From NCBI GenBank assembly GCA_947561715.1, contig OX387202.1, positions 10,367,001-10,431,000 on the forward strand: 64,000 bases of DNA, in the 5' to 3' direction. The notes under the pieces are model-generated. The model made no database searches, had not been told where the DNA came from, and saw nothing but the letters and a program-made list of their open reading frames with translations. How positions within the stretch are numbered: the stretch's first letter is position 1; every line of letters starts with the position of its first letter. Position numbers and translations under genes: made by a program. The DNA comes from Ascidia mentula. Taxonomy: Eukaryota > Chordata > Ascidiacea > Phlebobranchia > Ascidiidae. Of the stretch, positions 2,170 through 64,000 are shown one piece after another.

Positions 2170-4697
2170 CAAAGGGGTCACACCGTTGCGATTTGCGAAA
2201 AATCCTACATACCTTTTAACTGGATAAATGATACCTTCGTAGATTGTGTTGATAAAACTGACGAAATTTGCTCATTTTTCAACATTACATGTCAATCTTG
2301 TTATTTGATGGCTCTAACATGCCCAAGTGAAAAGGATGCCAGAAATCTCATACATACTAATGCTAATATTACGTGCAATGAAGTTTTCAGTCAAACGTGC
2401 GCTACTGATGTTCATAATTGTGAAGTTGATAAAGCGATTTGTACAATTTCAACATGCAGTGAATCCTGCAAAAACGTTTTTTTCTGTGAAAATCAACAAC
2501 TTATTGCAAGTGAATACTTTTGTGACACGCAAGCTGTTTATGGCTGCAAGGACAAAAGTGACGAAATTTGTCATGGGTTTGGGTTTAAATGTTCTGGGTC
2601 AACAAGAAAAGGTGTTTGCGTTTTACCTCAAACCAACGTCTACGATTCAGTGGCTCAATGTTCTGACAGTTCAGATATTTGCTTCCTCAATGGACAGTTT
2701 AGATGTTTCCAGTGTTTGGACGGAAAAATGGTTGTTTCAAGCCAGCAAGTCTGTGACGGTGTGGTGGATTGCTTCGATATGTCAGATGAATGTTTGTGTA
2801 AAAATCAAACATTGTGTCGCGATATAGTAGGAGATTGTGCACACAACCAAATGCATTGTAAGGACAGTTCTACATGTGTGAACCAAGATAAGGTGTTGTG
2901 TAACACAAGTGTAAAGTGTGTCAACCAAACTAACACAAAATATTGTTCAACTGCCACGGTATTAGTGCAAAATGAATGTATAGCAGATGGCAGCATTTTG
3001 AAAGGCAAAATATGGGTAATGATTCGATGTGCGTTACAGTTATGACGGAATTGTTTACATCATATGCTTCGATATGGGGAGGGATAGCTGAACTAAACTA
3101 TCCTTTGTGGTGTGATGGATCTGTCAAAGACGGTATCGGAGTTATCGGCGAACGTTTTTGTCCCAACAGGTTTAAGTGTTTTAGCAATGGAGAAATTAAC
3201 ATAGATAACCAAAGAGTCTGTGATGGAATAATTGATTGTGACGACAAATCAGATGAATTTCTAAATCTTTGTAACAATACCCGCTACTACTGCAGAAGTA
3301 AAGGAAAGAATTCCATAAATAGAGATCATGTTTGTGACGGAATAATTGATTGTCACGACGTATCTGATGAAAGCAGGTGTCGCTGTGAAAATACCAGGTT
3401 TTATTGCACCAACAAACTTCCTTTATCCGTTGAAATAGGGCTTATACAGAACGGAATTAATGATTGCTCAGACGGAAGTGACGAATGTGTCAATTTGGAT
3501 AGAAACGCTTTTGCAGACGTCAACGAAATGATCGCAAATCCCGTCTATCGCGGTATCTTCTGGTTGACAGGCATCTTAGCAATGGGAGGGAATTCGTTTG
3601 TATTTGTTACAACCACACTTGATTTGATTAAAGTCAACAAAAATAACAATTTGTTTATTAATACAAGCGTTTTTGTTCTTAATCTATGCGTTTCTGACCT
3701 TCTCATGGGAGTTTATCTACTAGCAGCCATAATACAAGCTAACAGATATTCTGGATCTTATTGTTTGTTTGATAAAGAATGGAGATCAAGTAGCTTGTGT
3801 TCAGGACTTGGGGCACTTCAACTGGTATCATCAGAAGCATCAGCACTCACAATGACAGCTATGACAACATTTCGCCTGATATCGGCCTATAAACCTTTCC
3901 ATATGCGAAATGTCGGTATTACGAAAACTTTAATTGCTGAATTGTCTTGTTGGATATTAGCTATTTTGATGGCAACCGTTCCTTTGCTTCACCCAACTTC
4001 TGAGTACTTTGTAACTGATGTTTGGTTTCCAAACAACTTTTTTGAAACAGATTTTGTGTCAAGAGAAAACATGATGTTACTTGCAGAAAGAATTTCGTTA
4101 TCAGAGCCAGAGTCTTGGTACGATGTTAAGCGTACAATTGTAAGTGCCTTTCCACGTAATTCTATTAAAAGAGAGTTTGGATATTATGGTGGAACGAGCG
4201 TCTGTATGCCACGTTTTTTTGCAACAACCAATGAGTATGCTTGGGAATATTCAACATTCCTTATTACACTCAACTTTCTCATGTTTATCTACATAGTGGT
4301 TGCTAATTTTCTTGTTTACAAGCGAAGCAACCGCATGAGAGGCTCCAGGAGAAATGACATCAGCTCCCGGATGCAGAAGAGAATCACCAGGTTGATTTTG
4401 ACCGACTTTTGTTGCTGGATTCCAATTTGTGTTATGGGATTTTTGAGTTTTGGAGGAATGAAGATGCCAGGAGATTCTTATGTGCTGAGTGCTTGTATGT
4501 TGCTTCCAATCAACAGCGCCCTTAACCCCTTGCTCTACTCCAAATCATTAGAAGAGCTATTGTCGAAGATAAAAGAATGGCTCGTTTCCAAAATATCATC
4601 ATCACGTACATCAAGGAGTCGTTCGTCTGAATTAAGCGTTAGATACAATCCCCGTGCTGAGCAGAGTGATGATCGAGTAATTGAGATTGTTGAATGA
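2170..4697 (+). pseudogene. LDLa-repeat relaxin-receptor-like GPCR, copy 1, with one frame change
   Basis: This encodes an LDLa-cysteine-rich ectodomain followed by a class A 7TM domain. The same architecture is intact at 31802-35728, which is the basis for the call. The open frame extends upstream of the first ATG (2308) to about 2190, giving an LDLa-like segment with the pairs DCVDKTDE and CQSC, so the copy starts mid-ectodomain and lacks the seven amino-terminal LDLa modules. A frame change falls between about 2985 and 3025: homology to the intact copy runs in one frame up to NECIADGS and in another from ELFTSY onward. After it come three LDLa modules (CDGIIDCDDKSDE type) and seven membrane segments. 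The NPLLY motif of TM7 is present, with FRL in place of DRY at the end of TM3. The frame change could be a true mutation, an undetected tiny intron or an assembly error. The 7TM half is otherwise undamaged, so decay is recent or absent. Confidence 0.75.
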
Positions 4698-14530: not shown

Positions 14531-14695
14531 TATAAGGTTCTCAGGCTTCGCAGGTAAGGCATTGCAGCCAAGCTGGATCAGCCATTTTTTCCAACAAGTC
14601 GGTGCGAGTGCGAGATCAAGCTCTCGGTGAGGTTTTAACTCACGAACCTGGGCTAATCAACTCCCGTGGTTTCACGGGGTATCCTGCTTTGCTAT
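14531..14695 (-). mobile_element. tRNA-derived SINE, second copy
   Basis: This has the same tail and B-box region as the copy at 13569-13745 but is more diverged and internally shortened. It ends about 40 bp before the left edge of segmental duplication copy B, so a SINE-mediated or SINE-adjacent breakpoint is possible. Confidence 0.6.
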
Positions 14696-14737
14696 GCAAA
14701 AAGAAGGTATTTCTTCTGCGTTATCCGTATAAGGTTG

Positions 14738-15948
14738 TGTTAATTTGGATAGAAAACGCTTTTGCAGATGTCAACAAAATGATCGCAAACCCAGTTTATC
14801 GAGATATCTTCTGGGTGACAGGCATCTTAGCAATGGGAGGGAATTCATTTGTATTTGTTACAACCACACTTGATTTGATTAAAGTCAATAAAAATAACAA
14901 TTTGTATATTAATACAAGCGTTTTTGTTCTTAATCTATGCGTTTCTGACCTTCTCATGGGAGTTTATCTACTGGCAATCATAATACAAGCTAACAGATAT
15001 TCTGGATCTTATTGTTTGTTTGATAAGGAATGGAGATCAAGTAGCTTGTGTTCAGGACTTGGGGCACTTGAACTGGTATCATCAGAAGCATCAGCACTCA
15101 CAATGACAGCTATGACAACATTTCGCCTGCTATCGGCCTATAGACCTTTCCACGTGCGATATGTCGGTGTCACTAAAACTTTAATTGCTGAATTGTCTTG
15201 TTGGATATTAGCTATTTTGTTGGCAACCGTTCCTTTCCTTCACCCAATTTCTGGGTACTTTGTAACTGATGTTTGGTTTCCAAACAACTTTTATGAAACA
15301 GATTTCGTGTCAAGAGAAAACATGGTGTTACTTGCAGAAAGAATTCCGGCATCAGAGCCAGAGTCTTGGTACGATGTTAAGCTTACAATTGAAAACACTT
15401 TTCCACGTAATTCTATCAAAAGAGAGTTTGGATATTATGGTGGAACGAGCGTCTGTATGCCACATTTGTTTGCAACAACCAATGAGTTTGCTTGGGAATA
15501 TTCAACATTCCTTATTACACTTCACTTCCTCATGTTTATATATATGGTGGTTGCTAATTTTCTTGTTTACAAGCGAAGCAACCGCATGAGAGGCTCCAGA
15601 AGAACTGACGTCAGCTCCCAGATGCAGAAGAGAATCACCAGGTTGATTTTGACCGACTTTTGTTGCTGGTTTCCAATTTGTTTCATGGGATTTTTGAGTT
15701 TTGGAGGAATGAAGATGCCGGGAGATTCTTATGTGCTGAGTGCGTGTATGTTGCTTCCAATCAACAGCGCCCTTAATCCCTTGCTCTACTCCAAATCATT
15801 AGAGGAGCTATTGTAGAAGATAAAAGAATGGCTCTTTTCCAAAATATGGTCATCACGTACATCAAGGAGTCGTCCGTCTGAATTAAGCGTTAGATACAAC
15901 CCCCGTGCTGAGCAGGATGGTGATCGAGTAATTGAGATTGTTGAATGA
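14738..15948 (+). pseudogene. LDLa-GPCR copy 3: duplicated 7TM domain without ectodomain
   Basis: Homology to copy 1 begins abruptly at the segment just before TM1 (NAFADVN). It continues through all seven membrane segments with only scattered substitutions and no interruption until TM7 (NPLLYS), where a TAG replaces the TCG of copy 1 after LEELL (15814-15816). The homologous carboxy-terminal tail continues as untranslated sequence to about 15948. No LDLa module, signal peptide or recognisable promoter precedes it. Upstream in-frame sequence from 14602 is SINE-related and not part of the family. The 3' flank has lost about 195 bp relative to copy 1. An open 7TM frame without the ligand-binding ectodomain suggests a truncated duplicate, possibly not expressed. 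Its low divergence indicates a recent event. Confidence 0.85.
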
Positions 15949-31801: not shown

Positions 31802-34800
31802 ATGATAAATGTAATAAATATAGTGCTTCTGTCAGTTTGTTTGGTGGAAGGTCTTTGTCCAACGGAGGACACAAGTTTGGCTCCACTTCCCTTCAAAAGT
31901 AAGTTGCGACATTTTTATTGCTCACGATTAGATATTTTGTGAATAAATCACTTTTTTTTGTGTGTGATTTTTTTAGTGATTATGTGGGTAAATCAGATAA
32001 ACACTTAATACACTTTACAACTTTCATTTGCACGATTAAGCACCAAACGGAATGTGAAACTGACAATTGACATACAGTCTGTAGTTGTGATGACCTCTGG
32101 TGAACTATTCCATAAATTAACATCATTTCAAAAACAAAAACAAATGTTGTCAAAATTTTGCGCAGGTCCAACGAACCTGACAACGTGTACCCCACCATAC
32201 CATGACGTCAATTGTATATGCCCAACAACCATGTTCGAATGCGCCTGCCATAAAATAGGAAGTTGTAAACCAAATGTACAGGGATGTATAAACATGATAA
32301 ACTTATACGACGGATGGAACAACTGCGGAGACTGGAGCGACGAAGTGGCCTCTGTGTGTCCCCCAGATTTTTTCCAGTGTCACTGCTACAATACATCATG
32401 CAAGTACGGAGGAAGCTGTGTATTTAATTTGCTTAAATGCGATTTAGTTGACGATTGCCCCGACGGAAGTGATGAGTTGGGTTGCGCATGTCCAGCCGAT
32501 AAGTTTGAGTGTCCATGCTACAAAACAGGAAACTGCACAAAGCTAAGAAGCGGGGGTGTAGTTGCAACAGTCGGTGGTTTTAATCCCTCATCTGGTTGTA
32601 TTAACAAGTCAGAAGTGTGTGACAGTTATAACAATTGTGGTGATTGGTATGACGAAATCAACTGCACATGTCCAGCGAATACATTAGAGTGTTCGTGCTA
32701 TAATACACAGAACTGTTCGCACCAATTTGGATGTCTTAATTATCCAAACATTATTCATTGCGACGGATTTGATAGCTGTGGGGATTGGAGTGATGAAATC
32801 AATTGTACGTCCTGTCCTGCTCACATGTTTGAGTGTCCGTGTTACAAAAACCGAAATTGTTCATCTGGCATCGGTTGCCTGTTAGCAATGAACCTGTGTG
32901 ATGGATTCAACCACTGCGGCGACTGGAGTGATGAGGAAAAATGCACATGTCCTGCTAATACATTTGAATGTGATTGTTATAAATCCAAAAACTGCAGTAA
33001 CGCCCTGGGAGGTTGCATTTCGTTCATTAATCAGTGCGACGGCTTGAACACATGCGGAGATTGGAGTGATGAAGTTAATTGCACCTGTCCAGCCAATACG
33101 TTTCAGTGTGCATGCGTCGGCACCAGACAATGTGTTGGAATAAACTTGAACTGCATTGATCATTCGTTGCTATGCGACGGAAATGAAGATTGTATTGACG
33201 GAAGTGATGAAACGCATCATACATGTAACTGTTCCGGTATTTCAGCAAAATGTCAGAATGAATATACAGGCGCCAATTTATCTCTACCAGGCAGATGCAT
33301 TCCCTATCAGTGGGTGGGCGATAACATCACAGACTGCATTGGTGGAAGTGACGATGCCTGCACTTCTAGTTCGTTTTCTTGCCAATCTTGCCACTCACTT
33401 TCTGTCAGCTGCAAAACGGAAAAGGAAGCCAGACAACTTATCAACACCAACACATCAATAATCTGCAATCATGTCACAAGAAAGACTTGTTCTTCCGATA
33501 TCAACAACTGTACATCAGAGAAGGTAGTTTGTACGACTACATCGTGTGCAAACGCAATTTGCAGGGATGTATTTTTCTGTGAAAATCAACAACTTGTTGC
33601 AAAAACAGAGTTTTGTGATGGTTCAAGTGACCCTTTACTCACTTGCAAAGACAAAAGCGACGAAATTCGACATGGATTTGGGTTTAAATGTTCTGGAGTC
33701 ACACGAAAAGCTGTTTGTGTTTTACCTCAGTCCAACGTCTACGATTCTGTGGCTCAGTGTTCGGACAATTCTGACCTATGCTTTGTCAATGGCCAATTTC
33801 GTTGCTTTCAATGTCTAGACAAAAGGCTTATAGTATCAAGCAAACAGGTATGTGACGGTGTTGTGGACTGCTTTGACATGTCGGACGAATGTCTGTGCGC
33901 TGATCAAACTTTGTGTCGGAAAGTTAGAGGAAGTTGTCATAGGAATGAAGTATTGTGTTACAACACGTCAGTATGCTTAGGCCAGGAAGGCGTTTTGTGC
34001 AACACAAGTGTTCAGTGTTCTGACCACATAAATACAAAATACTGCTCAAACGAGAAAAGATTGAAACCATATCTGTGTCCAGCAAACATAAGGATCAATC
34101 CAAATCGAACAGAAATCAGTAACCCCCGCTACAAATGCACAAAACTTGAGTTTTTTATGAGCAAGTATCCAACTGCTCCAAACAAAGATTTGCTGCAAAT
34201 ACTTCCATTTGTATGCAGTGGAAAAGTACAAAACCAATTGGGAGTTTTCACCGAACTTTACTGTCCAAACTTTGTTAGTTGTTTTAACAAGGGTGAGATT
34301 AATATCGCCAGTGATCGCGTATGCGACGGAAAAATCGACTGCGACGACAAATCAGATGAGTTTCTCGAAAAATGTAAAACTACTCGCTATTACTGCAAGA
34401 GTAAAGGAAGGATTTCAATTGCAAGAAAACATATTTGCGACGGCATAGTTGATTGCGACGATGAAACAGACGAAAGCCGTTGTAGTTGTGAAAGAACCAG
34501 ATTTTTCTGTTCAAATTCTCAACCTATTTCTATTGACAGGAAGTTTGTACACAATGGAATCGACGACTGTTCGGACGGAAGTGACGAATGTGTAAATTTA
34601 GTAAACAATGCATTCGCAAACGTAAACGAAATGATCGCAAACCCGTTTTATCGGGCTATCTTCTGGATTATGGCCATATTAGCGTTGGTGGGAAATGTTG
34701 TTGTGTTTGTCTCAACTGCTTGGAAACTGGCCAAATCAAACAAAAATGAGAACGTGTTTTTGTGTACAAGCGTGTTCATTCTTAACCTCTCAGCAGCAGA

Positions 34801-35728
34801 TTTTCTTATGGGGATTTACCTGTTGGGGATTATTATCCAGGCAACCCGGTTTTCTGGTTCCTATTGTTTGTTTGATAAGGAATGGAGATCTGGAAGCTTA
34901 TGTTCAGGTTTTGGAGCACTCGCTGTTTTATCGTCAGAGGCGTCATCTTTTACCATGGCCGCCATGACAACATTTCGCTTGATTTCAGCATTTAAGCCGT
35001 TTCTTATGAGGAATGCCAGTGTCGCTAAAACCATAACTTCAGGACTGTTTTGTTGGCTTTTTGCCATCCTTCTGGCTGTTATCCCGTTGTTGCAAGTTAC
35101 CTCAGGTTATTTTGTCACCAGTGTGTGGTTTCCAAACAACTTTTATCAAACGGATCTTGTTTCAAGGAGAAATATGTCACTTCTAGCTCACAGAGCTTCA
35201 AATTATAAACCCAGCCATTGGATTGACGTGAAAAGGGTTATTAATGAGATGTTTCCAAGGCAACCAATCAAAGGGGAATTTGGATATTATGGAGAAACAA
35301 GCGTCTGCATGCCGCGTCTATTTGCATCATCTGGTCAGTTCGCTTGGGAATATTCCACATTCATCATCACAATCAACTTTCTACTCTTTGTGTACATGGT
35401 AATTGCTTATGCTTTTATATTCAAGCAAAGCAATCGCATGAAAGCATCCCGAGGCAACGACAAAAGCTCCAAGATGCAGAAGAGAATAAGCAGATTGATT
35501 TTGACTAATTTCTTTTGTTGGATTCCGATTTGCATTATGGGATATCTGAGCATAGCAGGCGTAAAAATGCCTCCGGATGCTTATGTAGTGAGTGCTTGCC
35601 TGTTGCTTCCAATCAACAGCGCAATTAACCCCTTGCTCTACTCAAGTGTATTGATTGTGCGCCTGAAGAAGGCTAGAAATGACTTTACTTCTGTTGCTTT
35701 GTCTGTTCTTGGAACCAACGATAACTAG
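31802..35728 (+). CDS. LDLa-repeat relaxin-receptor-like GPCR, intact copy
   Basis: Two exons, 31802-31898 and 32166-35728, have a GT-AG intron and matching phase, giving 1219 residues. Exon 1 encodes a signal peptide (MINVINIVLLSVCLVEG). The ectodomain has about 13 LDLa-like modules. The first six use a GDW(S/Y)DE or DGSDE calcium motif with extra cysteines (FECxCY pattern); module 7 is followed by a degenerate one, a Cys-rich linker and five more modules, the last with CSDGSDEC. There are no leucine-rich repeats, unlike RXFP receptors or snail GRL101. The 7TM domain (about residues 855-1190) resembles relaxin receptors: DFLMGIYLL in TM2, SSEASSFTM in TM3, GYYGETSVCMP before TM5, and NPLLY in TM7. 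DRY is replaced by FRL. Extracellular loop 2 is about 75 residues long with VWFPNNFYQTD. Role inferred: plasma-membrane receptor for an unknown ligand. No frame damage is seen. Confidence 0.9.
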
Positions 35729-40880: not shown

Positions 40881-43015
40881 TTTATTTTAATCTCAGATAT
40901 ATAAAGCATACTGGTATTATGAATAGATTTGTTACAGTACATTCCTCTTTTGATTTTTCATACCTAATCTTGCCTTATAACCCTATGGCATGGCACAAAA
41001 ACCAACAACTGAACTTAAATGTGTTTCACAACATAGTGCTTGTTTAACGGTAAGTCCATACTTAAATCTGAATGATCGTCGTGCAACAACCAGCAATTGT
41101 TTATCAAACGTTCTTATCTGCGAAGGTTGCAGTACTTGACTTCACACTAAAGATAACGCTGGCGCCGCAAAATCGTGCTTATCGTTATTTAACAGGCGAT
41201 AGTTTGATGTGTTTCAAAACTTGGAAAATTTATATCAATCCCTGTTGATAAACCTGCGACCATAGGTTGCCACTTATTCACGATTTATCTGTGAACCGAA
41301 CACAATCAGAACAAAATGACTGACACTTGTAAAAAGCATAGCATTTGAGAATGCATAACATCTAATCAATACCATCGAAATATAGGAAATCTCAGGCGTG
41401 ACTTCACGAGGCAAAATATTGTCTGCATATTTTGTTGATCATCCGTCAACTATGGGTTCAACAAATGTTAAGCGGATAATATCAACATACTTAAACATAA
41501 AAATACATGTATCCATATACGCACAATAAAGCTGCTCGCGCACAGTTACAGGTATATAAGTTAAGAAAGCGTATTGTGAGACTGCAGCGTACCATTTGAA
41601 TTCCCGGTCGACTTGCTGCTGTGCTGAAGCTAAGTCTGCTTGCGTGTTCTTGCTGTAGACTACTGAATTTAAAACTCCGTGGCAGACTTATTTATTAATG
41701 GAAACACACGTTTGCAATACCAGGTGGCGTAAAGTTTAATTTTTTTCCAAGCCAGTTGTTAGTTAAGTGACCGAGACTATAGTCGGGTGGCAAAGTTAAT
41801 GACAGAGAATGACAGCGAATAATGACAACGAACAGAAAGAGTAAAGTGAGAACAGGTATTTAACAAGTTACAACGAAAAAAAGGTCTGTCGTCGAGCCGG
41901 ATGCCAGAAGACTGTGCGAGTTCTGCCGGAAAGTCTAACACCGTCTGCAGCCATCGGTCCGTATGTGTTTCAAATGTGTGAAGAATTAAGTAGGGAAACA
42001 TCCGTGTTGCTACAAGAGCAAAAAACTGTACACAGCACCGTAAGACCAAAAAACACATTCGGCAGGTAAATGGAGAAAGTTGGGCGCAGCGGTTGACCAA
42101 AAAATTATTGCTGGTCAAATAGATCACCACGCAAGCGCCAAAACAAAATTTAGTAATGTTGAAGTTCAAAAATTTTTGGGTGTAGTCTGCCAGACAAATA
42201 AACTTGTAAAAATATGGAACCAGAATTGCAAAACTATTGGGTGCTTGAAGTCAAATATACAAAATAAATTAAGCCAGAGAAACATCTCTCCCACGTTATG
42301 AGCAATGATTTTGAGTCAAAAGGAAACCTACACGAAATCGTCAATCTCACAGTAAGTGGAAGATTACCAAAATAATTTTAAAAATATGACCATGTGTTTG
42401 ACAGGCCACTTTCTCAACATAATGGGTTTGATTAGTGCAGCTTTGGAGTGACAACAACTATCATACAGTCGCTATGAGCCAGTCGATAGAAAACTTGACG
42501 CATAGGTTTTTTGCTCTATGCCATAGAGATAATGTATAGAGTTTAAACGTAGATGTGTCCCTGTACATTTAATTCAAGAATCTAGGATGACTTTTTATCG
42601 TTTAGAAATTAGTAGGAAAAGTGTAACTAACAACGTCCCATTTTAATATGCATTTCACTTGTGGATAGTATAGCTCATTGGGAGATATAGTTTGTTCAAG
42701 TGTAAAAGTGGATATTTCTTGGAAAGTTAAAGTAATCGCTGTTATTGGGACAAAATAAAATAAATTACCATTATTTACAAATTTATCATTATTTTCCCAA
42801 CTCCATTGTTTCCCACATACATGACTGTGTCTTGGAGGATCGTGTTGTGACATGTGAGTATGAAATGAAGTGTACAAAGAAGTCAGCTGGATTTTGGCAT
42901 GAAGATATTTAAGCGAGTCAGCAAAAATACTGTAACTAAGCAAGCGTTTGCAGGATGTCACACGTTGCTTGCTGACTGCAATAATTGCAGATTCATGTTT
43001 CCGTATTTACCGCAT
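40881..43015. other. Intergenic, nothing recognised
   Basis: Several short open frames (for example 41777-42169 on the minus strand) have no domain or splice support. No repeat was recognised. Confidence 0.45.
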
Positions 43016-43026
43016 TTTACCTCCAC

Positions 43027-43305
43027 CAGGAGAAAAAACATATAAATGTAATGATTGTGAAAAACAGTTTGCACGTTTTGGTGATGTTAAAGGACCACAC
43101 TGCAACGTACATGAAGGGAAAGAACCATCAGTTTAACGTCCGCAAGAAGCTTTTTAGCAGAAAAAATGGCCTTAAAGTTCATCTCACACATTGCAGTAAA
43201 ACCATATTGCAATGTTTGTAAGAAGGAAATGTCAAGATCAACTAGTCTGACTCTACACGATCGCACCCATAGAAAAGAAAAGCCTGATAAGGGTCTTGCT
43301 GGCAA
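43027..43305 (+). pseudogene. C2H2 zinc-finger pseudogene
   Basis: The plus strand reads GEKTYKCNDCEKQFARFGDV in one frame, then fragments of a second finger (LFSRKNGLKVHLTH) and a third (YCNVCKKEMSRSTSLTLHDR), in different frames. Cysteine and histidine spacing is partly kept. At least two frame changes show that it is decayed. It is probably related to the relics at 38-41 kb. Confidence 0.6.
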
Positions 43306-43348
43306 AAAACATCCAATTAGAAGCACTTAACGGAGTGATAAATGGAAA

Positions 43349-43645
43349 AGCCAACAATAATTTTATTGTGTAAGCTGCAGACAGATGGCCACTGTTTCGA
43401 CCTAAAAGGTCTCATCAGTGCAGCTGGTGTGACTTTCAGACGACTTTGCTGACCAAACGGCCCAGCAAAGACTTCCACTTTGTGGTAAATATGCAATCAC
43501 CGCATCCGTTGGGCTCCAAACTAGATGCAACCTTACGGAGAAAACAAGGTGGAAATACTATGGCCAAACAAAACTCAACCAATAGTGCCGTCAGGCCCTT
43601 TGTCACAATCTGTCTGCAGCTTACACAATTCATATTATTGGCTCC
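43349..43645. repeat. Short inverted repeat around a hammerhead motif
   Basis: The arm at 43349-43388 (AATTTTATTGTGTAAGCTGC inside it) has an inverted copy at 43606-43645, separated by about 215 bp. The left arm includes the ribozyme's cleavage-site strand, and the right arm repeats that strand in opposite orientation. No coding content is recognised. It is likely a small non-autonomous retroelement or part of one. Confidence 0.6.
43373..43425 (-). ncRNA. Hammerhead ribozyme, complete
   Basis: The minus strand folds as a type I hammerhead. Stem I is AGCTGCA paired with TGCAGCT (7 bp). The core CTGATGA is followed by stem II GACC/GGTC with a 5-base loop. GAA follows, then stem III ACAG/CTGT with a 7-base loop, and the cleavage residue C (complement of 43380) before stem I. 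All conserved core positions are present. Such ribozymes are known in animal non-autonomous retroelements and in Penelope-like elements. Predicted activity is self-cleavage of a minus-strand transcript between complements of 43380 and 43379. Confidence 0.87.
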
Positions 43646-43799
43646 ACTTTGCTTAACTAATAATTTTATTGTTTGGAAACTTGCAGGAGATTTCGTTTCC
43701 AGCAATGAAGAAAGTATAGTGGTTTACCTTCTGTTCAGTGCATCGTATTTCGCACGATCACACGTTTCTAAGCTTTTACAAACGAATGAATTCTGAACG

Positions 43800-44487
43800 T
43801 AATTTGTCATTAATACCTACCAGTTTCAATTAAGGAATTACAAGTTTTAATAACTTGGCAAGTAGCCAACATGAGACACAACGCTCTACCGCAAACCAAA
43901 CTATTTGTTAGTGAAAACTGAAAGTTGGTGAAACCGACAAACATAATAAACTATCGTTCTTTTATCTTCGATTTTGCAGTAACTTTGTTTTTTTCTTTAA
44001 AGATATCACATTGAGGCATTGACAAAAATCCTGCATTGAATCAAGTTTATTCACATTCTGTAAAATCTGATAAATTGTTCATATATTTACAACGCTGATT
44101 GTTTTTCAGCATAAAGCATGGAAATGGCTAAGCGGGGTGTTAAAACAAACACATGATATACAAGGGATGATAAACAGACGGATATCTTGTTAATAATTGA
44201 TTCGTTTCCTTGGAATTTTTTTATATTGACAGAGTGTTGACGTAGAATTATTTCGAAGTTTTGGTACCGACTGGTACCTGGATTATGAAAAACACGCAAC
44301 TATGCAATTTACAGCTTCGCAAAGATTTGTGTACAAGATTGTTTGATGGAAATCTGTTTCGTAATATTTATTACCTTTATTTTTTATTCTCTGATATACG
44401 ACATGTGCGAAGTCATGTTGTTAGCAAGGTTTTAAATGGCATTATAGTTATTGGAAGTTTAGCTTTTTGAAGCTTCCTAGATACTCA
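43800..44487. other. 3' flank of the ficolin-like gene
   Basis: No exon was seen. The 3' untranslated region of the minus-strand gene ending at 44488 should lie here. Confidence 0.45.
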
Positions 44488-47400
44488 TTAGCATTTAACT
44501 TTCATTTTAGATGCAAAGACTGTATTATATCCTCTCCACTGGTGCCAAGCAGTTTCTCCCCACTGACTATTGAGTTTGGCAATTGTACAGTATTGTCCAC
44601 GCCACCATGCTCCAAGACGATCTATATCACAATTGCCGTCTGGCCGTCTGCGAAGTACACAACGAAAAAATAATTTTCGTCGTTTCTAAACACCAAAAAA
44701 ACACAATAATGAAACATGCTCTATCATTATTACTCACACATCGCCGTGTCTGTCACGAGTTGTAAATCCCATCCCGTTAATGAATGTCATGGCGTCAGTT
44801 ACATTTCCCGAATCATGGGATAAAGTTATTCTGTAAGAACTTCCTTCATCGCCAATGCTAAAATTACTAAAACAGAGATTATACTAATGCAAACTAACAT
44901 CAGTAAATGACAACAAAATTTGTAGTTTTAAATCCATCTGCTTAGATTGGTTCTGTTTTACACCATGCTTCGAAAATATTTTCACATTGTGTCGTGTTGT
45001 GTGAAAGTGTTATTTGCAATGTATTAAAGACTGAGTAGAAAGAGAAGTGTGTGATAGGACGTAAGATAGGATGGTCGGTTGATGAATTCTTACTGCGTGT
45101 CGTAACGTGCTCAAATTTCAGATGTTATTTAACCTCGTCAAGGTAGCCCAATACACCGAATATCCTATTTACTTTTTTTCAAAGTATTTTTGAATGTAGG
45201 CCACACGTTTCTAGCACTAACACATGTATTGTCACCCAAGCTGTCATTTAAATTGTGGGTCCGGGTGACTTCTGTTAGAGGATAGAAAGTAAAAATACAT
45301 AGTTCTCTACATAGGTTGTGAGATGGTTTCGATTTGATTTGTTTGGCCTAATTTGTTTTGTCTGGAGACTGGCAATCAGTAAATTGTTTGCTGGTTGATT
45401 TACAACTCGATATAACCTTTACAACTGGCTATTTCCAATATGGACAAAATTACAAAATATTCCAAAGAAAAACTATAAATTTGCATTAACATCATTTGCA
45501 ATTCTTTACATTACGCTGTGTCGAGTAATTTATCGCTGCCACGAATTGATTAATTTCAACACAGTAAAATGATAATCTTACCTATACTCGGCAAAACCAA
45601 AACCAGTCCAGACAATCCGCATATCAATACGAAGACGACATGTAGTGGACGCACTGGTGATTTGATGCAGTTTCTCTAAACCTAATAAGGTTTTTTTTGT
45701 TACAAAAGTTTTTGGCGAAACAGACTACTGGCTTTATATCAACTGGGATCTTTCTCGGTACAAGTTTCATTGACGTATTGTTCGTCAGTGGTCGTTTATA
45801 GCAACCATTGACGAACAATGTTTTGAAAGCCAGGTTATCTATAGTATATAGTAAGTTTGTTGGCATAACACCATGAAACTAGCGATTAGATAATCTTCAC
45901 CAAACAAAACAAGTTCTTAATTTTAATATAACGCCACCAGCTCGAAAGTGTTAGTGCTATAGGACACTGGTGTTTAGTTTCTGTTCAAACTTATGAGTCA
46001 ATTGGACAATAACCTATCCAAAATTCTGTAGATAGATTCCCAAACCCCTTCTTGTAATCCACCCAATCTCTATCGAAACTCACAGATCCATCGTAACGGC
46101 GTTGGAACACCTGTTATTTATCACAGTTTTTATCAAAGCTGATTAAATAAACGGCCTAACATCCAATAACACTACATTTATATTGAGGTTCCATTAGAAG
46201 GTTGCAACATGGATAATCAACATTTACTCAAGTAAACAATGAAATGTATATTTTCACTTTCACCTGCCACCCGTCTTCACAGTAAGCTTCTTCTCCAGAT
46301 CTAAGAAGTTGGAGACCATGAACATGAGATGTTTTACAAGATTCGGAACCAAGACTTTGTAGAAGTTTTTCAATCCCTGTTTTTTGAAAATGTGTTATGT
46401 TGTATTATATTAGGTTTAAAGAACACGGACACATGAGGGACAATTTTCAACATCAGATTTTTGAAAAATTCCAATGTTTATGTAAAGTAACGTACGACCA
46501 GAAAGATCGTTTGAGAATCAATCAGTATTTTTATTTATATTGATTCACATTCCATGCGATTCGGGATGTTTTTTGGGGGGAAGGAGCTGGGACGAAAGTG
46601 TCGGGTTTGAAAAGTTGGGTTGTGAACTATTACACAACCCAACTTTTACGACCATTGTGGTGATGAACAACTTGGTGTTTATTACACGAAAGGGCAGTAA
46701 TGAACACAATGGTATTTTTTGGATAACGTTGCTTAATCTGTTTTAAACGAATAACACGAGTCTAAAGCTTGTTTGCACAAGTATAAAAATGAGTGATCTT
46801 AACTGTGATATGTACGATTCTGCTTATTCTGGAGTCGATCCACTTCATTCGTCAAAGCTATGAACAAAAGCTTGCGATTAAATAAAGAAGATAATTTATT
46901 TGCGTTAATTGCGGGAGTTTGAAGATAAACGATCAAAAATTATTAATATCCTCTAACATCTTGCTCTGCTAAACATAGTTGGTGAAATTTTCAGATAGGT
47001 AACTCATTCTTGAACTACCGGTAATAATTGAAGGTTTACTTTCAAAGTCTCTGGAATGCTATAGTTTCTAGTTCACTTCTTGTGAAAGACTGTTTTTTTA
47101 GTACATTGTATTTTTACAGCTCTTACATTTAAACCTAGATGAGTTGTTTTAGAAAATACGTTTATTTTAAATTATGTTTTACTGCTTCCTGGTACCCGCG
47201 CTGTTTATGCAGCGTGTCACGTGTAAAACTTGTTGTATGGATAACTGTCACGTAATTGGTTGGCTAGGCCACCAGTGGCAAATAGGAGTGATGATTACTT
47301 TCTTTTTCAATTTGTATTTCAAAATGTGATTACCACCTTCATATGTTTCATTTGAAGAAAATAAGCATGTGGGAAATCCACATACCGTTAATAAGACTCA

Positions 47401-47653: not shown

Positions 47654-48412
47654 ACTTCGACTGTGTGAATCTGTAACACCACACAGGAGAATTATATTAG
47701 TGGAATCAAGTGACCCAAAATAGTTGAGATCATTTCATTGCTAGTAAGTTTTAAGTACAAACTGCAAGGTGATCGCACGTCTAAAACCGCAGAAACTATA
47801 CAAACACTGTAGATAATAACAAATATATAAGTTGGTGTTTTAACATGAATGTTCTATCGAAATTCAAAACCAGATAAAAATGCAAACTATGTAAATTATA
47901 TAAAAATGTAAATTATTCTTAATCAGGAAAAATTAATTATAATCAGGCTATTGACGACACAACGTGCATTTAAGCTGAACATGTTAATTTGACGAACAAC
48001 ACACGTTAACAATCATCTAAAGTAGAATTATTGACAAACAGCTTTGATTAAAATCGTTGTTTTCTTCACAACGGTTAGTTCCGTAGCGTTTGGTCGTGTT
48101 ACAGTCTACTTGTCCCACTGAAACCATTCAATTCAGTATCTACAGGTACATTATTAAACAAAACTTTTATTAAACAGTTACATTTCATTTAACGGATAAC
48201 TTGGAATATCGATAACCTTACTTTGCCTGTCAGTAATAAAGTATCTAAAAACTGGATGATTTTCCCTCAGATACAACAAACTTTCCAATCGCATTTATCC
48301 TATCGTACTTTACCGAATATAATCTATTTCAAGACGGAATTGTTTTATTGATAACAAAGCATCATTCTTACCCTAGACCAGTACAAGAACCAAAAGTGTT
48401 TATCATAATAAG
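47654..48412. other. 5' flank of the ficolin-like gene
   Basis: The promoter is expected here but no clear element was picked out. The sequence is AT-rich without recognised repeats. Confidence 0.4.
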
Positions 48413-48460
48413 ATGCAGACATGGCCACTGTTTCAACCTGGAAGGTCTCGTCAGTGCAGC
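48413..48460 (-). ncRNA. Hammerhead ribozyme, second copy
   Basis: The minus strand has CTGACGA (allowed variation at the seventh core position), stem II GACC/GGTT with a wobble pair, GAAA, and a shortened stem III (ACA/TGT). A cleavage C precedes TGCA, which pairs with TGCA of stem I (4 bp). Flanking sequence (ACTTCCACTTTGTGGT nearby on the plus strand) is shared with the copy at 43373, so both belong to one dispersed repeat. The weaker stems suggest reduced activity. Confidence 0.65.
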
Positions 48461-51047
48461 TATGGTGTGACTCACAACCATCTTGTCAACTAAATAGCCG
48501 GCAAGACTTCCACTTTGTGGTGACTATGCAGTCGTAAACAATGTTTGCAGATCATAACACACATCTTGCATCCTAAATTGTGCCAGTCATGAGTAAACAG
48601 CATTTATCTCTAGTTTGTTTTATTCCATCCTGAACGCAATCATTCATAATTATAACTGATTTTTTATAAAAAAACGATAACACAATTTGTGCCACAACCA
48701 CAAGTTTTCTAACACGTTCCGAAATCTACCTTTTTCCAACGCCACCTGTTGTGCGTGACACAAGCGATAACTTCTTATTTGCAAAATTACAATATAACAT
48801 AACTTTGTGTCAAGCGCATTTATTGTAAAGAATACATGTTTCGCTAAAAGCTTCCTCAGTTCAAAAATGAAATAGAAAAAAAAAGTAAAATGCTGAAAAT
48901 GAAATGTTAAAACTGGCCGAACAAATAGGCTGCTGGTGGTAACCTCCAAGACACTGTGAATAGTCAGGTGACCTACTTGCGTGACGTAGCACCGCGGCCG
49001 CAAGCATGCGGTGCGTGTGAAGATAAAACCGTAGGGCAACTGAAAGAACGTTAAAGTTGCACGAGCCCTCTGGATTGCCGACGACTTTAATCAGAGCAAA
49101 CAACTTCTTGTTGCCCGATAACACGAAATCGGAAGCAGATCAAATGATAAGAACGACAGAGAAACATGGCTTATCAACACACAGCTTGTCATAACGAGGG
49201 TGTGTAGATTTTGTTCAAGGAAAAGTGGCGCAATGAATAATGCTAGCCTTGTTTGCTAACGATGGTTTGATTGGTTGATTTTGTAACATTTGAACCACGG
49301 TTTAAAGATCCAAAAGGTTTGAAACAAAATGTAAAACTAAGTTACATTATGTTTTTTATAAACCTCATGACGTATACAAAGATACCAGACCCTGTCCTGA
49401 AATTACTAAACACCCAGCGAAACAAACTCACAAGTAGTGTTCACTTTCCGAAAAACTTTTCATATTGATGTTCTTGTAGCGTTCCTTAACCTTTGTTTTT
49501 ATTCTGGCGTAAAAAGTTCCTACCTGTTATGTTGGATGTGTGATATAACGGTAAACGAAATCAGCAAATGTAACTTTTAACGTGCATGGCAGAAAGAGTC
49601 AATTGTCACTAAAATACATGCTGGTTTTTGATGGTCTCAATCCAATGCTCAATCCAAGTATTTGTTCCCACATCTTTCCATTTTACGTTTTCTGATAAAT
49701 GTCTATAATCTTAGGTAAATGTCTTTAATCCAAAGAGGCTGTGATGGTATTTAAATAAAATGTGGTGGCTAATGTAAATAAACTTATATATTGATCACAC
49801 ACAACTGTTTAGAACGCAACAATATTGCTTTCATTTGTACGCTATGTCCAAACCATGACTACAACGTGTCGGAAGAATTATCTACCTACAGAAGTAAAGA
49901 CAACAACTCAACACATTCCACCTTGTACATTGAAAGTGAGTCACCCTCGATTAAAGGGAACCTCAAACATTTGCTTAAAACCGTGTGTAATAAAGTTATT
50001 ACACCTCACATCTCAGGGGGACTTCCTAGCCATCAAAATACGTTATGATGACGCAGAAAAACACTATTTGTTTTTCACACGACTATGACTCAAAAAGTTT
50101 ATGCCTAAAAAACACTAAAAGGTCGAGATGTATTTTCTAATATTTAATTTTTTATCATAGTGCATTTAGATTGTTTTTTTTACCCTTTGTTTTTATCATA
50201 ACCGCAGACAACTCGTTGTTCGGCTACTAATCTCTCGAAAAGTCGAAAGGGCTGTATCATTGAATTCTCGACCATTGCATTGGCTAATTTGTTAATTTCA
50301 AAGTCACATTTCTTCCCGGTTTGCTGTCACAATATACTGCATTATTCTAAGTCATCATTATGGACTGCAGAAACTCATCGGCCATAGTAAGTGTATTAGC
50401 GAAGATACATAAGTAGAATATGTCAGACAAACTGGACATTACAATAAAGTATCGTTGTTTATAAGCCAAATGTGCAGTTTCTAACAACCTGGGATTGATA
50501 GACATGAAATCCTAGGTGTTTCGTAAAACAAATAACTTCTGTACTTTGCATAAATTTATTTAATGGCTTCACTCGAGTCTTGTCGACAGTGATTTCATTC
50601 CGTGTTGATTAAGACTATGCCCAAGAAAATCCATAGTGGTTTTGCCAAATTGATATTTCTGTAGGTTAAGAACCAATTCGTAATCGGAGAGAAACACGCG
50701 AGAAAGGGCACACTGCACGCCTGGGTGCACATTATTCATGGCACATTCAACGTGGTCGCCATAACAGTTTGATTTTCATCACGTAAGTTTCTTAATCACG
50801 TCCAACCAATGCATAATTACAGATATACACTTCACTAACTCCTTTAGATGATCACGTTTGTCAAGAAAATTTATTTTAAAATGTGGAGCCAAACATTTTA
50901 TTCAAAGTATCATTTTCAATAGTGTGAGATATTCCATCATATTTTTCACCGTCGTAGGAGAAAACGTTCAATAGAATTTTACCATATGTGTTTATAGTGG
51001 TTGTCCCATTTTTCATTACTCCAGCAGTCTTTTTTTTGCAAGGCCAT
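48461..51047. other. Intergenic, nothing firm
   Basis: Open frames at 48650-49124 (minus) and 49791-50088 (plus) have no recognisable domain. The left part continues the hammerhead-bearing repeat for about 80 bp. Confidence 0.4.
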
Positions 51048-62607: not shown

Positions 62608-64000
62608 CTAGTTTGAACGAAGTGAGAATACAAAAGAGGCAATGGACTTTCGTGCTTGACCCAAGCGCCGTTCCAATATATTAGAGTAGAGCAAGGGGTT
62701 AAGTGCGCTGTTGATCGGTAGCAACAGACAAGCACTCACTACATAAGCATCCGGAGGCATTTTAACACCTGATATGCTCAGATATCCCATAATGGAAACC
62801 GGAATCCAACAACAGAAATCAGTCAAAATCAATCTGCTTATTCTCTTCTGCATCTGAGAGCTATTATCGTTGCCCCGGGATGCTTTCATGCGATTATTTT
62901 GCTTGAAAATAAAAACATAAGCAATTACCATGTAGACAAACATTAGAAAGTTGATTGTGATGATGAATGTAGAATATTCCCAAGCGAACTGATTAGTTGT
63001 AGCGAAAAGTCGTGGCATGCAGACGCTTGTTTCCCCATAATAACCAATTTCCCCTTTAATTGGTTGCCTTGGAAACATATCAGTTATAATTTGTTTTACC
63101 TCAAACCAATTATCTGGTTTAATATTTGAAACTCTTTGCGCCAGAAGTGACATATTTATTCTTGACACAAGATCTGTTTGATAAAAATTGTTTGGAAACC
63201 AGACACTTGAAACAAAATACTTGGAAGTGATGTGTAACAGTGGGATAATAGCTAAAAGAATAGCTGCCACCCAGCAAAAGACTACAACAGTTACAGTTTT
63301 AACGACACTGGCATTCCTCATAACAAAGGGTTTCAATGAAGAGATCAAACGAAATGTTGTCATGGAGGCCATAGTAAAAGATGACGTTTGCGATGACACA
63401 AGTGCAACTGCTCCAAAACCTGAACATAAGCTTCCAGATCTCCACTCCTTATCAAACAAACAATAGGAACCAGAAAACCGAGTTGCCTGGACAACGATCC
63501 CCAACAGGTAAATTCCCATGAGAAAATCGGCTGCTGAGAGGTTAAGAATGAACACGCTTGTGCACACAAACACGTTCTGATCCTTGTTCGACTTTGCTAA
63601 TCTACAAGCAGTTGAGACAAACACAAACGAATTTCCCAACAATGCAAAGATTGCCATAATCCAGAAGAAAGCACGATAAAATGGGTTTGCAATCATTTCA
63701 TTAACGTTTGCGAATGCATTGTTCACTAAATTTACACATTCGTCACTTCCGTCCGAACAGTCGTCGATTCCATTGTTAACAAGCTTCCTGTTAATGGAAA
63801 GAGGTTGAGAATTTAAACAATAAAATCTGGTTCCCTCGCAACGACAACGGTTTTCGTCTATTCCGTTATCGCAATCAACTATGCCGTCGCAAATATGTTT
63901 TCTTGCAATTGAAATCCTTCCTTTTCTCTTGCAGTAATAGCGAGTAGTTTTACATTTTTCTAGAAACTCATCTGATTTGTCGTCGCAGTCGATTTTTCCG
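62608..64000 (-). CDS. LDLa-repeat relaxin-receptor-like GPCR, copy 4, partial at window edge
   Basis: The open frame enters from the right edge with no stop and ends in TAG at 62610-62608. It covers the last three LDLa modules (CDDKSDE, CDGIVDC, CSDGSDEC) and the whole 7TM domain. TM2 has DFLMGIYLL, TM3 has SSQTSSFTM followed by TTFRLIS, and VWFPNNFYQTD lies in the long second extracellular loop. TM7 has NPLLYS, and the short tail ends SLRSN. It is closest to the intact copy at 31802-35728, and clearly more distant from copies 1 and 3. Orientation is opposite to the other copies. One LDLa module is altered (DNGIDE for DDETDE), which may weaken calcium binding. The rest of the ectodomain lies outside the window. 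Confidence 0.9.
   Translation of the reverse strand, partial: GKIDCDDKSDEFLEKCKTTRYYCKRKGRISIARKHICDGIVDCDNGIDENRCRCEGTRFYCLNSQPLSINRKLVNNGIDDCSDGSDECVNLVNNAFANVNEMIANPFYRAFFWIMAIFALLGNSFVFVSTACRLAKSNKDQNVFVCTSVFILNLSAADFLMGIYLLGIVVQATRFSGSYCLFDKEWRSGSLCSGFGAVALVSSQTSSFTMASMTTFRLISSLKPFVMRNASVVKTVTVVVFCWVAAILLAIIPLLHITSKYFVSSVWFPNNFYQTDLVSRINMSLLAQRVSNIKPDNWFEVKQIITDMFPRQPIKGEIGYYGETSVCMPRLFATTNQFAWEYSTFIITINFLMFVYMVIAYVFIFKQNNRMKASRGNDNSSQMQKRISRLILTDFCCWIPVSIMGYLSISGVKMPPDAYVVSACLLLPINSALNPLLYSNILERRLGQARKSIASFVFSLRSN

What the first reader, a model, noticed from the sequence alone, without database searches (positions are those of the whole stretch)
43373..43425. Complete hammerhead ribozyme on the minus strand
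All core positions (CTGATGA, GAAA, cleavage C) and three helices are present: stem I 7 bp, stem II 4 bp, stem III 4 bp. A chance match with all three stems paired is very unlikely. Such ribozymes mark retrozyme-like or Penelope-like non-autonomous elements that may circulate as RNA circles.
Basis: seen in the sequence. Interest (0 to 1): 0.75.

Follow-up and report, generated by a model that had tools for sequence, protein, structure and literature searches.

The report
Sea-squirt retrozyme with Penelope-type ends
The predicted self-cutting RNA motif is real and sits in a small repeated jumping element of a sea squirt, and the way its copies are inserted matches that of Penelope-type elements in the same genome, pointing to what moves it.

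Summary
A complete hammerhead (stems 7/5/4 bp, intact core) lies on the minus strand at 43373-43425. Rfam gives no hit at its curated thresholds, but the genome holds 1,944 exact matches to core plus stem II, against 0 for the reversed control. The genome is Ascidia mentula, a tunicate. The motif belongs to a non-coding 285-bp unit, dispersed and sometimes tandem: an animal non-LTR retrozyme.

The new part is the insertion anatomy. The window copy is a head-to-head insertion flanked by a 14-bp duplication. In 17 of 17 head-to-head insertions, among 31 distinct insertions traced, one arm ends +9 to +27 nt past the cleavage site and the other +36 to +52. A tail of about 30-40 bp on one of two inverted ends is a published trait of Penelope-like elements (PLEs). 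An 801-aa PLE family in this genome shows it in 5 of 5 head-to-head pairs, with 12-14 bp duplications. This is strong but indirect evidence that PLE machinery moves the retrozyme, a point the papers I read leave open. Self-cleavage, RNA circles and the partner PLE remain unproven.

The parts
43373..43425 (-). type I hammerhead ribozyme: stem I 43419-43425 with 43373-43379; core CTGATGA 43412-43418; stem II 43407-43411 with 43399-43403; GAAA 43395-43398; stem III 43392-43395 with 43381-43384; C17 at 43380
   Evidence: sequence; 0 of 400 random sequences; 1,944 genome matches
43370..43609 (-). long arm of the inserted retrozyme, most of one 285-bp unit, with the short end (+13 after the cleavage site) at its 3' side
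   Evidence: about 90% identity to the L009 unit; end positions (locus L029 = this copy)
43608..43658 (+). short inverted arm, head-to-head with the long arm, carrying the long end (+44 after the cleavage site)
   Evidence: inverted repeat 43365-43386 / 43608-43629, 22 nt, 100%
43356..43369 (.). target-site duplication, left copy AATAATTTTATTGT; its right end overlaps possible element letters, so the true length is 9-14 bp
43659..43672 (.). target-site duplication, right copy
48408..48532 (-). decayed family A fragment with damaged ribozyme (48409-48463)
   Evidence: 53.5 bits; 79% identity
31353..31429 (+). decayed family A fragment with damaged ribozyme core
   Evidence: 44.8 bits
37666..37729 (-). 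decayed fragment with damaged ribozyme
   Evidence: 36.1 bits
56116..56246 (-). decayed family B copy with damaged ribozyme stem II
   Evidence: 34.7 bits; 78% identity
56250..56296 (+). inverted arm of the same decayed B copy (head-to-head)
   Evidence: 79% identity over 48 nt

Best explanation
The site is the ribozyme of a non-autonomous, non-coding animal retrozyme in the sea squirt Ascidia mentula. Inferred cycle: tandem units are transcribed; the hammerhead cuts the RNA into 285-nt units; a host ligase may close them into circles; the reverse transcriptase and GIY-YIG endonuclease of a PLE cut DNA on both strands and start copying the RNA at two fixed sites flanking a tail hairpin (about +13 and about +44 past the cleavage site), one for each target strand. 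This gives head-to-head insertions with one short end, one long end and a duplication of about 12 bp; repeated trips round a circle, or copying of an uncut multimer, gives tandem arrays. Shown by sequence: ribozyme anatomy, copy number, non-coding unit, an array, duplications, two fixed ends, the one-short-one-long rule, and the same rule in a PLE family of this genome. Inferred: self-cleavage, circles, hairpin recognition, and the partner PLE.
For: Genome counts with zero controls. Duplications of 8 bp or more in 15 of 31 distinct insertions against 18 of 930 mismatched flank pairings; 12 of the 17 head-to-head ones have them. One short and one long end in 17 of 17 head-to-head insertions, 11 of 11 if the six fetched by similarity to the window copy are left out; mean difference 29.7 nt, range 23-37. 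The same rule in 5 of 5 head-to-head pairs of an 801-aa PLE family, ends 39 nt apart, duplications 12-14 bp; a second PLE family has ends 32 nt apart. PLEs with RVT_1 and GIY-YIG in one frame exist here. Published PLE traits: an optional 31-bp tail on one of two inverted pLTRs with short duplications (PMC3846280, passages); a PLE protein that extends both strands and starts copying at two internal sites bounding the tail (PMC11167929, parts 1-2 of 4).
Against: No partner PLE: the retrozyme shares no end sequence with the 27 PLE 3' regions compared, and PLE ribozymes here are of a different, minimal kind. Tail lengths differ (about 30 nt in the retrozyme, 39 in the 801-aa PLE). Duplications of 8 bp or more are missing in 16 of 31 insertions, 5 of the 17 head-to-head ones among them. 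For the window motif a non-catalytic fold is predicted 1.4 kcal/mol better than the active one. Against copying from a single circle: arms of one insertion differ by 1.8-8.6% in 7 of the 8 two-arm comparisons, and two adjacent L031 units differ at 9 of 284 positions. No RNA data.
Confidence: 0.8

Rival explanations
1. The retrozyme is moved by a LINE; the inverted arm comes from twin priming or template jumping.
For: LINE-type reverse transcriptases are abundant (150 of 150 scored RVT_1 candidates; I did not classify them), and LINE insertions also have duplications of this length (established knowledge).
Against: Twin priming leaves the second end at variable internal places; here both outer ends are fixed and one of each kind occurs in 17 of 17, as in PLEs of this genome.
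Confidence: 0.1
2. A satellite DNA spread by recombination or extrachromosomal DNA circles, with a decayed or idle ribozyme.
For: A 285-bp tandem array exists; similar animal repeats were long called satellites (PMC7761336, passages).
Against: In the listed places 79 of the first 100 are neither head-to-head nor tandem neighbours within 600 bp in pairs counted (15 close pairs in all), and dispersed copies have duplications and fixed ends.
Confidence: 0.05
3. The unit is a cut-down PLE (a solo or tandem pseudo-LTR of a PLE not yet found) rather than a separate retrozyme lineage.
For: Same ends, tail and duplications; PLE pseudo-LTRs also carry hammerheads. A published review suggests retrozymes may derive from PLEs (PMC11722881, passages).
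Against: No match between unit and 27 PLE 3' regions; the ribozyme has helix III whereas PLE ones here do not.
Confidence: 0.15
4. Chance resemblance to a hammerhead.
For: No Rfam hit at gathering score.
Against: 0 in 400 random sequences; 1,944 genome matches, control 0.
Confidence: 0.01

Closest known systems
Metazoan non-LTR retrozymes (PMC7229834: abstract, part 2 of 6, sections 14 and 17 and passages read)
   Same: Type I hammerhead in 150-450 bp tandem units, GC below 50%, non-coding, duplications longer than 4 bp, co-existing PLEs.
   Different: Tunicate host. The main text of that paper does not contain 'inverted' or 'head-to-head', so the head-to-head ends with a tail are not described there in those words. 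Circles and cleavage, shown there for coral, mussel and axolotl, are not shown here.
Penelope-like elements (PMC3846280 passages; PMC11167929 parts 1-2 of 4)
   Same: Head-to-head insertions, a tail of 30-40 nt on one of two inverted ends, duplications of about 8-14 bp, tandem copies, hammerhead motif.
   Different: The retrozyme encodes no protein and its ribozyme has helix III; PLE ribozymes seen here lack it.
Plant LTR retrozymes (PMC4918200: search listing only; described in PMC7229834 and PMC7761336)
   Same: Non-coding retroelement with a hammerhead and an RNA-circle stage.
   Different: Type III ribozymes in LTRs, 4-bp duplications, thought to use Gypsy enzymes.

Membership tests
Hammerhead ribozyme, type I | conserved core and three helices, stem I open | tested here: met
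Hammerhead ribozyme, type I | Rfam RF00163 at gathering score | tested here: not met
   also below it in six family loci, best 24.7 bits against 34
Hammerhead ribozyme, type I | self-cleavage | not testable with these tools
   needs transcription assay
Metazoan non-LTR retrozyme | tandem units of 150-450 bp with the ribozyme | tested here: met
   285 bp, 5.9 copies in L009
Metazoan non-LTR retrozyme | GC below 50%, no coding frame | tested here: met
   GC 0.47 and 0.46; longest stop-free frame 94 and 69 aa
Metazoan non-LTR retrozyme | duplications longer than 4 bp | tested here: met
   8-16 bp in 15 of 31
Metazoan non-LTR retrozyme | no LTR, primer-binding site or polypurine tract | not tested
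   not searched for
Metazoan non-LTR retrozyme | expressed as small RNA circles | not testable with these tools
   no RNA data
Penelope-like element | reverse transcriptase frame, usually with GIY-YIG | tested here: not met
   no such frame in the unit; in the loci L009-L040 only L035 and L039 show a nearby RT-motif fragment
Penelope-like element | head-to-head insertion with a 30-40 nt tail on one end | tested here: met
   17 of 17 head-to-head insertions; 5 of 5 PLE pairs for comparison
tRNA-derived SINE | tRNA-like head | tested here: not met
   ARAGORN finds none in L009, L013, L022, L031; degenerate heads would be missed

The most novel reading that the evidence does not exclude
A PLE reverse transcriptase copies the ribozyme-made closed RNA circle itself: it starts at two fixed sites flanking the tail hairpin, one on each cut DNA strand, and runs one to several times round the circle. 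Animal retrozymes would then be parasites of PLEs and their genomic copies direct footprints of circle copying.
Probability: 0.4. Interest if true: 0.75.

Novelty: new member of a known kind. Interest (0 to 1): 0.6.

Why it matters
Which enzyme moves animal retrozymes is left open in the papers I read: 'LINEs or PLEs among others', with PLEs a strong candidate (PMC7229834, section 17), and no conserved motif from which to deduce the partner (PMC7761336, passages). Two fixed ends, one short and one long, are a footprint that can be counted in any genome and that points to PLE machinery. It also narrows the template to an RNA continuous across the cleavage site and names two start sites to test with purified PLE protein. 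It adds a tunicate family of about two thousand ribozymes.

Tried and rejected
Chance match: rejected. Ribozyme shared by retrozyme and PLE: of 27 PLE 3' regions compared, L054 holds a separate retrozyme copy beside the PLE and the weak match in L081 is a decayed retrozyme copy. Partner by shared end sequence: none in those 27. Identity of the two arms as proof of one template: inconclusive; perfect in L009 (148 nt) and L014 (117 nt), but 1.8-8.6% different in L010, L011, L012, L015, L016, L024 and L028. My note that subfamilies A and B are unrelated outside the ribozyme was wrong: 210 of 266 aligned positions are identical. The core cannot be called conserved from alignment A1, because the loci and the extraction both used the core as a filter; covariation is weak (2 of 16 pairs change on both sides).

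Limits of the counts: L009-L016 and L028 were chosen from the listing because ribozymes lay head-to-head, and L029-L040 by similarity to the window copy, so 17 of 31 is not an unbiased share of head-to-head copies; the one-short-one-long rule was not a reason for choosing the first group, but similarity to a query holding both ends could favour it in the second. Five loci (L002, L005-L008) were left out before the count as overlapping, or assumed duplicates of, L027/L028 (flanks of L007/L008 not checked), and 13 of 44 insertions because they shared flanks. L027 has a weak second arm and was not counted as head-to-head. Of the 14 insertions not head-to-head, 9 end at +9 to +17; the others are partial or complex. 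In the PLE set of 22 regions, L053 lies inside a tandem array and is not a true end, and L073/L079 share flanks.

Full report
What was checked. The minus strand at 43425-43373 carries every element claimed: a 7-bp stem I, CTGATGA, a 5-bp stem II with a 3-nt loop, GAAA, a 4-bp stem III and C17 at the cleavage site. Core and stems together occur once in the window and in none of 400 random 64-kb sequences. Rfam does not call it; the sub-threshold match is a poor type III alignment, and six other family loci also stay below all gathering scores. The genome holds 984 + 960 exact matches to core plus stem II, control 0, and 852 + 805 to a pattern reaching the distal strand of stem I, control 0. A family model gives 88.6 bits at the site, circular because the window sequence equals row 1 of its alignment, and finds four decayed relatives in the window. 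At 37 C a non-catalytic pairing is predicted 1.4 kcal/mol below the active fold for the window motif, while for subfamilies B and C the optimum contains the hammerhead with an extended helix III; at 15 C the non-catalytic pairing is the optimum in all three. Covariation is weak.

Which organism. The mitochondrial COX1 makes sense only if AGA/AGG read as glycine, the ascidian code (the conserved COX1 motifs used as yardstick are recalled). The first contig is 27,920,005 bp long, exactly the longest scaffold of the Ascidia mentula assembly kaAscMent1.1, and the other chromosome-sized contigs seen agree with its table (PMC11109543, passages). The window is on C70, 21.17 Mb, matching chromosome 6.

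What the element is. From cleavage site to cleavage site the unit is 285 bp in family A (the window's) and 293 bp in family B; the two agree at 210 of 266 aligned positions, have GC 0.47 and 0.46 and no stop-free frame above 94 aa. L009 holds 5.9 tandem copies; of its five full units three are identical, one has 3 mismatches and one an indel, and the inverted arm matches over 148 nt. Eleven other insertions differ from this unit by 0.8-7.0%. The uniform array fits one circle copied several times; a uniform source array or gene conversion would do as well, and L031 has two adjacent units with 9 mismatches in 284, which one circle would not give unless they diverged later.

How copies are inserted. 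I traced 44 insertions in 35 loci; 31 remain after removing shared flanks. Exact duplications of 8 bp or more flank 15 of 31, against 18 of 930 mismatched flank pairings. Seventeen are head-to-head (12 of these with such a duplication). In each of the 17 one arm ends +9 to +27 after the cleavage site (15 of 17 at +9 to +19) and the other +36 to +52; the mean difference is 29.7 nt, range 23-37. If each end were chosen freely with equal odds the chance would be about 1 in 130,000; leaving out the six fetched by similarity to the window copy, 11 of 11 obey (about 1 in 2,000). Among the 100 listed ribozyme places, neighbours within 600 bp form 10 head-to-head, 5 tandem and 0 tail-to-tail pairs. 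The window copy is typical: ends at +13 and +44, duplications at 43356-43369 and 43659-43672. In both families the two ends lie on either side of, or within the far strand of, a predicted hairpin.

What this matches. [quoted passage not shown] A purified anole PLE protein cuts and extends both strands at AT-rich sites and starts copying at two internal sites whose interval is the tail (PMC11167929). In this genome 121 GIY-YIG matches were found among 150 scored of 382 candidates, and one open frame carries RVT_1 and GIY-YIG together. For an 801-aa PLE family I read 22 three-prime regions: 14 end at the short site, 8 contain the long site 39 nt further on (one of these internal to an array). 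The five head-to-head pairs, picked because they were head-to-head, each have one of each, with shared flanks of 12-14 bp. Another family shows ends 32 nt apart. PLE ribozymes recognised in 8 of 20 further 3' regions are minimal, with an extra base before stem II and no helix III.

Reading. The retrozyme encodes no enzyme, yet its copies bear the insertion footprint of PLEs in the same genome. The simplest account is that a PLE enzyme inserts it. Both ends lie downstream of the cleavage site, so the template was not a linear monomer cut at both ends: it was a closed circle or an uncut multimer. I lean to the circle because of the L009 array and because circles are documented for retrozymes of coral, mussel and axolotl (PMC7229834, PMC7761336), but arm and unit differences in older copies do not favour it.

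Known and new. Animal retrozymes are known, and PLEs have been named as likely movers from co-occurrence, tandem copies and shared ribozyme type (PMC7229834; also PMC8969392, passage), while a review says the repeats show no motif from which to deduce the partner (PMC7761336). No held paper contains both retrozyme and ascidian. Ten papers hold at least three of retrozyme, pLTR, Penelope and inverted; in the passages or parts I read of six of them I saw no PLE-type tail described for retrozymes. Nine type I hammerhead loci are reported in another tunicate, Didemnum vexillum, without retrozyme context in the passages seen (PMC8704543); the search that found it listed 12 of 1,465 papers. Three relevant papers are not held, so earlier mention cannot be excluded. 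Compared with the returned draft, only the odds of the circle reading were lowered (0.45 to 0.40), because of the L031 unit difference.

Noticed in passing
window 43391-43421 (-); family A unit as circle: CACTG, which overlaps the catalytic core, can pair with CAGTG after GAAA; this hairpin is in the predicted optimum of the window motif and of the family A circle. It could be an off switch protecting circles from re-cutting.
   Followed up: partly
loci L001, L029 (window), L032, L033, L034, L037, L038: A recurrent junction: the long-end arm is minimal and starts in or next to the ribozyme, while the short-end arm starts at unit position about 44-77, as if copying stalled at the ribozyme fold or at the tail.
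   Followed up: partly
window 41831-45150: 98.8% identical over 3.3 kb to G000:C70 about 116 kb away (L030), with the same retrozyme insertion: a recent segmental duplication.
   Followed up: partly
window 42404-42442: 77% direct repeat of the ribozyme stretch 43387-43425, probably another retrozyme relic; not found by the family model at E<=10.
   Followed up: no
window 2305-4697, 14602-15816, 32054-35728, 62608-63726: Rhodopsin-type receptor genes and LDL-receptor class A repeats; the frame at 2976-4697 has both.
   Followed up: no
G000 small contigs C15, C21, C49, C51: Reverse-transcriptase hits in stop-free frames of 3,977 to 19,197 aa; perhaps masked stretches, not looked at.
   Followed up: no
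locus L054 957-1201: A head-to-head family B retrozyme lies several hundred bases downstream of a PLE frame.
   Followed up: no
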